Shown piece after piece: positions 27,483-30,143 of a stretch of DNA of 64,000 bases. Source of the DNA: Streptomyces griseiscabiei (GTDB lineage: Bacteria; Actinomycetota; Actinomycetes; Streptomycetales; Streptomycetaceae); the NCBI RefSeq assembly GCF_020010925.1, contig NZ_JAGJBZ010000001.1, positions 1,302,001 to 1,366,000 on the forward strand, given 5' to 3'. Each line of letters opens with the position of its first letter. Position 1 is the first letter of the stretch. Under the pieces are notes generated by a model. It did no database searches and was not told the DNA's origin. It saw only the letters and a list, made by a program, of their open reading frames with translations. A program made the translations under genes and the position numbers.

Positions 27483-30143
27483 GTGTCAGGCTCCCTCCAC
27501 CCCGCCGCCCGTTGCCACGCGGTGCGCGTCCGCTCGGACCGTGCCCCGGCCGCCGCGGACCTTCCGGGGCTGTGGATCGAGGACGTGCCCGTACCGGCGG
27601 CCCACCCGCTCGCCGAGCGCCGCCGCCGCGCCGAACTCGGCCGCCCGGCCGAGACACCGCGCTCGGTCCTGCTGCGCTACGCCGACGGCCCCCACGACCT
27701 GATCGTCGTGGCCCCGCGCGACCGGTGGGACCGTACGGCCCTGGGACGGCTGGCGGCCGGCGAACCCGTCGCCCCGGCGACCGCCCCGGCGGGCTCCGGC
27801 GCACCCGCGACCGTACCCGTGCCCATGACCATGACCGCGCCAGGGCCCGGGCCGGTGCCGGCATGGGGGCTGGCCGACGACGGCCCCACCGTGCCCCACC
27901 TGTTCTCCCTCGCCGAGGGCGGCGACGAGGCGTCCTGGCTCGCCGCCCTCGCCGTCACCCTGCGGCACTACGACCCCGAGAGCGCCCCGGTCATCGGAAC
28001 GGACCACGGTTTCCTCACCGTCGAGGAGGCGCCGACCCTAGGTGAGCTGAAGCCCTCCCCCACGGACGGCCCCGCGTTCGCCGGTCTGCTCTTCGACGGG
28101 ACGGAGGTGCCCGGCGCGTATGTGCCCTGTCTGGCGCCGCCGTTCCCGCTCACCCTGTCGGTCTTCAGGGACGCCGACGGCTGGCGGCTGCGCTGCGACC
28201 ATGCCTCCACGCACGTCTCGTCCGAGATGGCCGTGCAGTTCGCCCGGCATCTCGTACGCGTGCACCAGCTCGTCCTGAGCGGGCCCACGACCCCGGTCGA
28301 CGACGTCGATCCGCTGGACGACGCCGAACGCGCCCGGGTCGCGGCGCTCGGCCGGCCGCTCCACCCCCTGGTCAGCACCCCGACCGGCGTACCCGAGGCG
28401 TTCGCGCGGATCGCGGACGCGACACCGGACCGGGTCGCCGTGACGGACGGCGCCGCCGGTCTGACCTATCGCGAACTGGACGACCGCGCCACCCTCCTGG
28501 CCCACGGTCTGCGCGCCCGCGGCGTCGCCGCCGGGGACCGGGTGGGCGTGTGCCTGGAACGCACCGCCGAACTCGTCGTCGCGCTGCTGGCCGTGCTGAA
28601 AGCCGGCGCGGCGTATGTACCCGTCGATCCCGCGTACCCGGCGGACCGTATCGCCCACACCGTGCGGGACGCGGGCGCGGGCGCGGTGCTCACCCGGCTG
28701 TCGGGGTTCCCGGACGTGCCGGGCTGTGCGCCGGTCACACCGGACGAACTCCTCGACGCGGCGCCGGAGTCGGGGGCCGCGACAGCGCTGCCCCCGGTCG
28801 GCCCCGACGCCGCCGCGTACGTCATCTACACCTCCGGCTCCACCGGCCGCCCCAAGGGCGTCGAGGTGCCGCACCGCAATGTCGTCGCCCTGATCGACGC
28901 GACCCGCGACGAGTACGGGTTGGGGGCCGAGGACGTGTGGACCTGGTTCCACTCCGGCGCCTTCGACTTCTCCGTGTGGGAGATCTGGGGCTGTCTGCTG
29001 ACCGGCGGACGGCTGGTCGTCGTCCCGTACTTCGTCTCCCGCGAGCCCGACCGCTTCCGGGACCTGCTGGTGTCCGAGCGGGTCACCGTGCTCAGCCAGA
29101 CCCCGTCGGCGTTCGCCCAGTTGCTGGACGTGGACCACACCCGGGTCGGGGTCCGGCTGGTCGTGTTCGGCGGTGAACCGCTCGACACGCGCATGCTGCT
29201 GCCCTGGTTCGACCGGCACCCCGAGCCCGTCTGCCGGGTGGTGAACATGTTCGGCATCACCGAGACCACGGTCCATGTCACCCACCAGACGCTGACCCGG
29301 CACCTGGCGCTCACCGCCAGCCGCTCCGTCGGGCCGGCGCTGCCCGGCTGGCACCTGTACGTGACCGACGAGGCGGGACGGCTGCGGCCGCCGGGCGTGG
29401 CCGGGGAGATCTGCGTCGGCGGCGCCGGGGTCGCCCTCGGCTATCTCGGCCAGGAGGAACTGACGGCCCGCCGCTTCGTCCCGGACCCGTTCACCGGCGG
29501 CACCATGTACCGCAGCGGTGACCTGGGCCGGCTGCGCCCCGACGGGTGCCTCGAACATCTGGGGCGGATCGACAGCCAGGTCAAGATCCGTGGCTTCCGC
29601 ATCGAACTGGACGAGATCCGCGCGGTCCTGCTGGAGGACCCCGATGTCCGGTCGGCGGCCGTCGCCGTCCACCACGACGACCCGGCCGACGCCGCAACCG
29701 CCCGTATCGACGCGTACGTGGTCCTCACCGGCGGCACCCCGTCCACGGTCCGCACCCGGGCGGCGGGCATCCTGCCCGCGCACATGCTCCCCGCCACGGT
29801 GACCCCGCTGGAGTCGCTGCCCCTGACGCACAACGGAAAGCTCGACACGGCACGGCTCCCGGCACCGGTGTCCGTCGGAAGCCGGACGCACACCGGCGAA
29901 GCCGCCGCACCCGCCGCGGACGGCGATCTCGCCGAACGCCTCACGGAGATCTGGAGCGAGGTGCTGGGCCTGCCCGTCGGCCCGGACGACGACTTCTTCG
30001 AGCTCGGCGGCAACTCCCTCCTCGCCGTCCGTATCGGCGCTGCGCTGCGCGCCCAGGGCCTGCCGACGCTGCGTCTGCGGGAGTTGTACCGCCACCCGAC
30101 CGTCCGGGAGACCGCCGAGAACCTCGCCGCCTCGAACACCTGA
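27483..30143 (+). CDS. Stand-alone NRPS C*-A-T protein, threonine-like A domain
   Basis: 886 residues from GTG 27483, preceded by AAGGAG; the long open frame further upstream is the SDR gene read out of frame. Residues 1-290 resemble the second half of a condensation domain (C-D-H-A-S-T-H-V-S-S-E-M-A, L-D-D-A-E-R-A-R-V) but show no H-H-x-x-x-D-G, so this part is probably inactive. The A domain follows (Y-T-S-G-S-T-G-R-P-K-G ~450, F-D-F-S-V-W-E ~495, M-F-G-I-T-E-T-T-V-H ~590), then a carrier (L-G-G-N-S ~840). The pocket reads by eye D-F-W-S-V-G-M-V-H, close to threonine codes. No C or TE domain follows, so it cannot work as a normal module. The simplest role is loading threonine in trans onto the A-less module 2 of the main NRPS, as proposed for ramoplanin-type systems. 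Confidence 0.9.
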   Translation: MSGSLHPAARCHAVRVRSDRAPAAADLPGLWIEDVPVPAAHPLAERRRRAELGRPAETPRSVLLRYADGPHDLIVVAPRDRWDRTALGRLAAGEPVAPATAPAGSGAPATVPVPMTMTAPGPGPVPAWGLADDGPTVPHLFSLAEGGDEASWLAALAVTLRHYDPESAPVIGTDHGFLTVEEAPTLGELKPSPTDGPAFAGLLFDGTEVPGAYVPCLAPPFPLTLSVFRDADGWRLRCDHASTHVSSEMAVQFARHLVRVHQLVLSGPTTPVDDVDPLDDAERARVAALGRPLHPLVSTPTGVPEAFARIADATPDRVAVTDGAAGLTYRELDDRATLLAHGLRARGVAAGDRVGVCLERTAELVVALLAVLKAGAAYVPVDPAYPADRIAHTVRDAGAGAVLTRLSGFPDVPGCAPVTPDELLDAAPESGAATALPPVGPDAAAYVIYTSGSTGRPKGVEVPHRNVVALIDATRDEYGLGAEDVWTWFHSGAFDFSVWEIWGCLLTGGRLVVVPYFVSREPDRFRDLLVSERVTVLSQTPSAFAQLLDVDHTRVGVRLVVFGGEPLDTRMLLPWFDRHPEPVCRVVNMFGITETTVHVTHQTLTRHLALTASRSVGPALPGWHLYVTDEAGRLRPPGVAGEICVGGAGVALGYLGQEELTARRFVPDPFTGGTMYRSGDLGRLRPDGCLEHLGRIDSQVKIRGFRIELDEIRAVLLEDPDVRSAAVAVHHDDPADAATARIDAYVVLTGGTPSTVRTRAAGILPAHMLPATVTPLESLPLTHNGKLDTARLPAPVSVGSRTHTGEAAAPAADGDLAERLTEIWSEVLGLPVGPDDDFFELGGNSLLAVRIGAALRAQGLPTLRLRELYRHPTVRETAENLAASNT

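What the first reader, a model, noticed from the sequence alone, without database searches (positions are those of the whole stretch)
27483..30143. Stand-alone threonine-type A-T protein as trans loader for the A-less module
The cluster has exactly one orphan A-T and exactly one A-less module. The pocket residues read D-F-W-S-V-G-M-V-H, near the threonine code. In ramoplanin and enduracidin a comparable A-T protein is thought to supply threonine to an A-less module, and the neighbours here (thioesterase, SDR, then A-T) appear, as I recall, in the same order as Ramo15-16-17. If right, this is a compact trans-loading system with reductive release, which I do not know from any described pathway.
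Basis: partly seen in the sequence, partly recalled or inferred. Interest (0 to 1): 0.75.

Follow-up and report, generated by a model that had tools for sequence, protein, structure and literature searches.

The report
Threonine loader of a rotihibin cluster
The gene makes a separate enzyme that picks up threonine and hands it to a gap in a peptide-building machine; the machine is the already published one for rotihibins, plant-growth-inhibiting lipopeptides of Streptomyces, so the find is ordinary, although its gene neighbourhood strengthens a proposal for how bacteria make the rare building block allo-threonine.

Summary
In detail: window 27483-30143 encodes an intact 886-aa A-T protein with code DFWSVGMVH, and its cluster has one A-less C-T module. 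The novelty claim is not correct. Gene order and content match the rotihibin (rth) cluster of Streptomyces scabies 87-22, published in 2021 (PMC8552735): the A-T is RthB, module 2 lacks A, release is reductive, and deleting rthB abolished rotihibins (complementation failed). The residue there is L-allo-Thr. Against S. scabiei 87.22 the A-T, SDR and TE are 73, 94 and 86% identical.

Starting from the SDR, 83 loci (391 genomes searched) show TE upstream in 81, A-T downstream in 75 of 78 with room, and a threonine-type code in 75 of 75. In reverse, 28 of 29 A-T genes have the SDR. An A-less module was found at 61 of 83 loci, a reductase domain at only 5. This favours the published, untested idea (PMC9943842) that threonine is inverted to L-allo-threonine on the A-T carrier and then shuttled by the thioesterase. 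Known system, low interest as found; moderate for the allo-threonine question.

The parts
27483..30143 (+). RthB homologue: stand-alone A-T protein, 886 aa
   Evidence: 73% identical to the S. scabiei 87.22 protein
27483..28382 (+). N-terminal part of RthB: shortened condensation-like domain without HHxxxDG
28401..29858 (+). A domain, code DFWSVGMVH (threonine type)
29934..30122 (+). Carrier (T) domain with GGNS
26611..27435 (+). RthC homologue: SDR, proposed to invert C-beta of carrier-bound threonine
25834..26580 (+). RthD homologue: type II thioesterase with GHSLG, proposed aminoacyl shuttle
24714..25883 (+). RthE homologue: luciferase-like (F420-type) oxidoreductase; role unknown
22732..24611 (+). 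RthG and RthF homologues: ABC ATPase (22732-23703) and permease (23700-24611)
20837..22693 (-). RthH homologue: AMP-binding protein, fatty acyl-AMP ligase by homology to RthH
17365..20840 (-). RthI and RthJ homologues: two acyl-CoA dehydrogenases (starts not fixed)
16953..17348 (-). RthK homologue: acyl carrier protein
324..16950 (-). RthA homologue: five-module NRPS, C-A-T-E / C-T / C-A-T / C-A-T / C-A-T-R; read in two frames in this assembly (12.6-16.95 kb and 0.32-12.67 kb)
10968..12485 (-). A-less module 2: C 11307-12485 and T 10968-11165
687..1406 (-). Terminal reductase domain (PF07993)
1..178 (-). RthL homologue: MbtH-like protein, running out of the window; RthM- and RthN-like genes (TauD oxygenase, class III aminotransferase) follow outside it in L031

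Best explanation
This is the RthB protein of a rotihibin-type (rth) lipopeptide cluster. Step 1: its A domain activates L-threonine and loads its own carrier domain (inferred from the pocket code; shown in vitro for the threonine trans A domain of WS9326A). Step 2: on that carrier the neighbouring SDR oxidises and re-reduces the beta-hydroxyl, giving L-allo-threonine (inferred; in print only as a hypothesis). Step 3: the type II thioesterase moves the aminoacyl group through its serine to the carrier of the A-less C-T module 2 (inferred; shown for LgnA). Step 4: modules 3-5 extend the chain and the R domain releases it (inferred from the published rotihibins, which end in asparaginol). The N-terminus of RthB is a relic of a C-A-T ancestor.
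For: Same gene order and content as rth (PMC8552735). Identity to S. scabiei 87.22 for RthB, C, D, E, F, G, H: 73, 94, 86, 91, 83, 86, 86%. Same A codes in modules 1, 3, 4, 5 as the nearest relative L062. SDR-based survey: TE upstream 81 of 83, A-T downstream 75 of 78 with room, threonine-type code 75 of 75, SDR Ser-Tyr-Lys 83 of 83. Second, named set: TE 80 of 80, A-T 72 of 73 with room. Reverse: 28 of 29 distinct A-T genes have the SDR within 1.5 kb. Exactly one A-less module at 61 of 83 loci. Published: rthB deletion abolishes rotihibins; L-allo-Thr at the A-less position in rotihibin, enduracidin and WS9326A.
Against: No chemistry was done. The rthB mutant was not complemented, so polarity is possible. 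22 of 83 loci showed no A-less module in the DNA examined, some with 60 kb in view, so trans-loading is not the cassette's only use. The large NRPS gene here is in two frames, so this copy may be a broken pathway or an assembly error. L139 and L140 have the SDR without the usual A-T, L130 and L249 have no A domain after it, L012 has the A-T without the SDR. The linked loci are related and not independent, and all 74 genomes of the first set are of one genus.
Confidence: 0.8

Rival explanations
1. The A-T protein loads plain L-threonine, or free L-allo-threonine made elsewhere, and the SDR acts at another step, such as reducing the released aldehyde or tailoring the lipid.
For: The SDR is of a large general family; the closest solved relatives by sequence are carveol dehydrogenases and other generic SDRs. 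The pocket code alone does not tell Thr from allo-Thr. PMC8552735 leaves the role of RthC open, and PMC13320435 predicts that EndD recognises L-allo-Thr.
Against: The SDR goes with the A-T and not with reductive release: a reductase-like domain was found at 5 of 83 loci (an undercount, since long NRPSs are cut at fetched edges) while the A-T is at 75 of 78.
Confidence: 0.2
2. The A domain of RthB charges the A-less carrier directly in trans and the thioesterase only proofreads.
For: Direct trans-charging is described for other systems (passages in PMC7539972). The thioesterase has an ordinary GHSLG.
Against: RthB keeps its own intact carrier (GGNS). LgnA, a thioesterase with the same motif, forms a threonyl enzyme and transfers it. 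The matching enduracidin thioesterase is indispensable, unlike its proofreading paralogue.
Confidence: 0.15
3. RthB also supplies a second allo-threonine attached to the Dab side chain (an addition to the best explanation, not a replacement).
For: Suggested in PMC8552735. No other threonine-type A domain was found in the window's cluster: the other NRPS codes are DVWHSGSV-, DVWHVGAVD, DLTKVGEIG and DMTLVGEVG.
Against: Nothing here tests it. The condensation-like part of RthB has no His at the motif positions, so it is unlikely to form the bond itself.
Confidence: 0.4

Closest known systems
Rotihibin cluster (rth), Streptomyces scabies 87-22 (PMC8552735)
   Same: Same genes in the same order, including rthE (their E form), A-less module 2, terminal reductase, stand-alone threonine-type A-T
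   Different: RthB is only 73% identical; the large NRPS gene is in two frames in this assembly; product unknown
WS9326A (Cal22/WS22, WS20, WS21; PMC7539972 passages, PMC9943842 passages)
   Same: Threonine trans A-T, SDR and type II thioesterase, A-less C-T module, L-allo-Thr in the product
   Different: Cyclic depsipeptide with two trans A-Ts; another main NRPS and no reductive release described in the passages read
Enduracidin (EndD, EndB module 8, End_25645; PMC13320435 passages)
   Same: Stand-alone A-T, A-less module 8, L-allo-Thr8, needed TEII between endC and endD
   Different: 17-residue lipodepsipeptide; I saw no mention of the SDR in the passages read
Globomycin GlobC/GlobD/GlobE (PMC9943842 passages)
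   Same: TEII, SDR and threonine-type A-T adjacent; L-allo-Thr in the product; source of the inversion hypothesis
   Different: Every module has an A domain, so no A-less acceptor
LgnA/LgnB (PMC8748450 passages)
   Same: TEII with Ser in GHSxG moves L-Thr from an A-T to a C-T carrier
   Different: LgnA is under 30% identical to RthD according to the paper; no inversion of threonine in the passages read

Membership tests
rotihibin (rth) cluster, E form | rthB-C-D-E-F-G on one strand, rthH-I-J-K-A-L-M-N on the other | tested here: met
   last genes lie just outside the window in L031
rotihibin (rth) cluster, E form | Five-module NRPS with E in module 1, A-less module 2, terminal reductase | tested here: met
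   domains complete, but in two reading frames
rotihibin (rth) cluster, E form | A codes as in relatives (Cit, Dab, OH-Asn, Asn positions) | tested here: met
   identical to L062 at modules 1, 3, 4, 5; substrates are those assigned in PMC8552735
rotihibin (rth) cluster, E form | Makes a rotihibin | not testable with these tools
   needs metabolite analysis
trans threonine loading (WS9326A/enduracidin type) | Stand-alone A-T with a threonine-type code | tested here: met
trans threonine loading (WS9326A/enduracidin type) | A-less C-T acceptor module in the same cluster | tested here: met
trans threonine loading (WS9326A/enduracidin type) | Carrier-to-carrier transfer of threonine | not testable with these tools
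   needs purified proteins
trans threonine loading (WS9326A/enduracidin type) | A-T groups with EndD/Ramo17 in a tree | not tested
   no named EndD or Ramo17 sequence was obtained
LgnA-type TEII aminoacyl shuttle | Serine in GHSxG of a thioesterase fold | tested here: met
LgnA-type TEII aminoacyl shuttle | Falls in the LgnA clade | not tested
   reported for RthD in PMC8748450
SyrC-type aminoacyltransferase | Active-site cysteine (recalled) | tested here: not met
   GHSLG in the window

The most novel reading that the evidence does not exclude
TE-SDR-A-T is a general, horizontally spread cassette that makes L-allo-threonine on a carrier protein and feeds it into peptide assembly lines, in trans where the acceptor module lacks an A domain. 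The idea is in print for globomycin, himastatin and WS9326A without a test. Added here: the three genes and the threonine-type code are almost inseparable in 83 and 80 loci (two partly overlapping sets), from Streptomyces to Hahella, Pseudomonas and Caballeronia, in clusters of many architectures, and the rotihibin-type A-T carries a decayed condensation-like domain.
Probability: 0.72. Interest if true: 0.5.

Novelty: already known. Interest (0 to 1): 0.22.

Why it matters
As found, it re-identifies a published cluster. The useful part is the linkage. PMC9943842 says in 2023 that the bacterial origin of L-allo-threonine is unresolved, and the searches listed no later paper that I could see settles it (open-access library only). 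The strict SDR/A-T pairing names the enzyme to test, a simple labelled-threonine experiment would decide, and the cassette becomes a genome-mining marker for allo-threonine peptides.

Tried and rejected
Rejected: (1) 'Undescribed pathway': refuted by PMC8552735. (2) SyrC-like cysteine aminoacyltransferase: the window's thioesterase has serine (one of the 81 aligned thioesterases reads GHCLG). (3) SDR as a partner of reductive release: reductase-like domains at only 5 of 83 loci (an undercount, since long NRPSs are cut at fetched edges, e.g. L063). (4) The N-terminal 300 residues as a new fold: the model superposes on condensation domains and hhalign agrees, the latter weakly.

Led nowhere: paper searches for Ramo17 and for trans adenylation with aldehyde release. 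The PDB sequence search with the SDR gave only generic SDRs. The control for A-less modules is small (5 loci, 1 of 24 C domains). Loci are not independent (related clusters in related species).

Exceptions: L130 and L249 have no A domain within 2.6 kb after the SDR; L139 and L140 have TE downstream and an A domain of code DMYNMGLIH about 4 kb away; L078, L084, L091, L092 and L128 end at a contig edge; L012 has the A-T but no SDR within 1.5 kb; one code in the named set is DYWSVGMVH (L225) and one could not be read (L209).

Full report
What is there. Window 27483-30143 (+) is one open frame from a GTG with AAGGAG eight bases upstream to a stop, 886 aa. Pfam gives AMP-binding, AMP-binding_C and PP-binding. 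The nine specificity positions read DFWSVGMVH; the usual threonine codes DFWNVGMVH and DFWNIGMVH (recalled as such) differ at one or two places and also occur at this position among relatives. The carrier has GGNS.

The cluster. To the left lie SDR (26611-27435), type II thioesterase (25834-26580), luciferase-like oxidoreductase (24714-25883), ABC permease and ATPase (22732-24611); then, on the other strand, an AMP-binding protein matching the fatty acyl-AMP ligase RthH, two acyl-CoA dehydrogenases, an acyl carrier protein and the large NRPS. The NRPS has C-A-T-E, then C-T without A (C 11307-12485, T 10968-11165), then three C-A-T, then a terminal reductase. At and just beyond the left edge are an MbtH-like protein, a TauD-type oxygenase and a class III aminotransferase (L031). 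In this assembly the NRPS is read in two frames; in L062-L065 it is one frame.

It is a known cluster. The table in PMC8552735 (outline, passages, section 12 and the first part of section 14 seen) lists RthB unimodular NRPS, RthC SDR, RthD TEII, RthE F420 oxidoreductase, RthF and RthG ABC transporter, RthH FAAL, RthI and RthJ acyl-CoA dehydrogenases, RthK ACP, RthA pentamodular NRPS, RthL MbtH, RthM Asn oxygenase, RthN Dab transaminase: the same order. The authors note the missing A domain of module 2, propose RthB as the threonine supplier and RthD as the shuttle, cite enduracidin and WS9326A, and report that replacing rthB abolished rotihibins while complementation failed. Against S. scabiei 87.22 (L208) RthB, C, D, E, F, G, H are 73, 94, 86, 91, 83, 86, 86% identical. 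The A codes of modules 1, 3, 4 and 5 (DVWHSGSV-, DVWHVGAVD, DLTKVGEIG, DMTLVGEVG) equal those of the nearest relative L062, so a rotihibin of the C/D kind is expected if the NRPS works.

Precedents (passages of each paper seen). In WS9326A the trans A domain for threonine is essential and selective in vitro (PMC7539972). In enduracidin module 8 lacks A, endD deletion abolishes product, residue 8 is L-allo-Thr, and the TEII between endC and endD is indispensable (PMC13320435). LgnA, a TEII with Ser77 in GHSxG, was seen as the threonyl enzyme and moves Thr between carriers (PMC8748450). The globomycin paper proposes that GlobE/GlobD, HmtF/HmtG and WS22/WS21 make L-allo-Thr on the carrier by oxidation and re-reduction, and says its bacterial origin remains to be elucidated (PMC9943842). 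Searches listed no later test of this that I recognised.

Survey. I searched the SDR in 391 genomes of the order: 74 have a relative at E <= 1e-80, all in the window's genus (1 of 10 genera); 83 matches, the window's own included. DNA around the 82 others was fetched. SDR Ser-Tyr-Lys: 83 of 83. Thioesterase within 400 bases upstream on the same strand: 81 of 83 (GHSxG 79, GHCLG 1, one not aligned). A domain within 2.6 kb downstream: 75 of 78 with sequence there (five loci end at a contig edge). Codes: DFWSVGMVH 49, DFWNVGMVH 17, DFWNIGMVH 8, DFWGVGMVH 1. A second set of 80 named loci (best 80 of 579 candidates, partly the same species as the first) gives TE 80 of 80 and A-T 72 of 73 with more than 2.5 kb of room; codes DFWSVGMVH 53, DFWNVGMVH 13, DFWNIGMVH 5, DFWSIGMVH 2, DYWSVGMVH 1, one unreadable. 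It includes Hahella, Pseudomonas and Caballeronia besides many actinobacteria. In reverse, the N-terminal domain of the A-T was found in 28 of 295 genomes of the genus; of the 30 loci given, 29 have an SDR of this profile within 1.5 kb; two of the 30 are the same gene, so 28 of 29 genes, the window's own included.

A-less modules. In 4.9 to 64 kb per locus, 61 of 83 loci show exactly one C-T without A. The control, five NRPS loci from genomes without a hit, has 1 in 24 C-type domains; cassette loci have 61 in 251. The 22 loci without one include cut contigs, but also well-covered ones such as L087, L133 and the second cassette of this same genome (L081). In the named set 42 of 80 show one or more within about 10 kb, three Micromonospora loci two. 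So the cassette goes with threonine activation more strictly than with an A-less module, which fits globomycin.

Reading. The threonine-type code, the near-constant SDR, and L-allo-Thr in the rotihibin, enduracidin, WS9326A and globomycin products favour inversion at the beta-carbon while threonine sits on the A-T carrier, then transfer by the thioesterase. Shown here: anatomy, identity of the cluster, linkage. Shown by others for relatives: Thr activation, Thr transfer by a TEII, need for the A-T. Inferred: the inversion and its place. Not done: any chemistry, and the tree against Ramo17 and EndD.

Noticed in passing
window 324-16950 (-): The large NRPS gene is split over two reading frames that meet between the E domain of module 1 and the C domain of module 2; close relatives have it in one frame.
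   Followed up: partly
L081 (own genome, G000:C2:3267942-3268754 and surroundings): A second TE-SDR-A-T cassette (SDR 69% identical, code DFWNVGMVH) beside a two-module NRPS on the other strand whose A domains give odd codes; no A-less module in 60 kb. L123 and L127 look alike.
   Followed up: partly
L247 (Hahella), L263 (Caballeronia), L269 (Pseudomonas): The same cassette order with threonine-type code in Gram-negative bacteria, SDR 67-71% identical, which points to transfer between phyla.
   Followed up: no
L139, L140: Variant neighbourhood: TE downstream of the SDR and an A-T of code DMYNMGLIH about 4 kb away, with an A-less module; perhaps another hydroxy or amino acid substrate.
   Followed up: no
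L254, L257, L259 (Micromonospora): Two A-less C-T modules with one cassette, the only loci of both sets with two.
   Followed up: no
L130 (G088): TE, SDR and the N-terminal domain of the A-T are present but no A domain was detected and no NRPS within 60 kb: perhaps a decaying remnant.
   Followed up: no
window 30402-31889 (+): Amino-acid permease directly downstream of the A-T gene; not part of the published rth cluster.
   Followed up: no
window 32944-34536 (-): Protein with a ricin-B-type lectin domain near its C-terminus, beyond the cluster.
   Followed up: no
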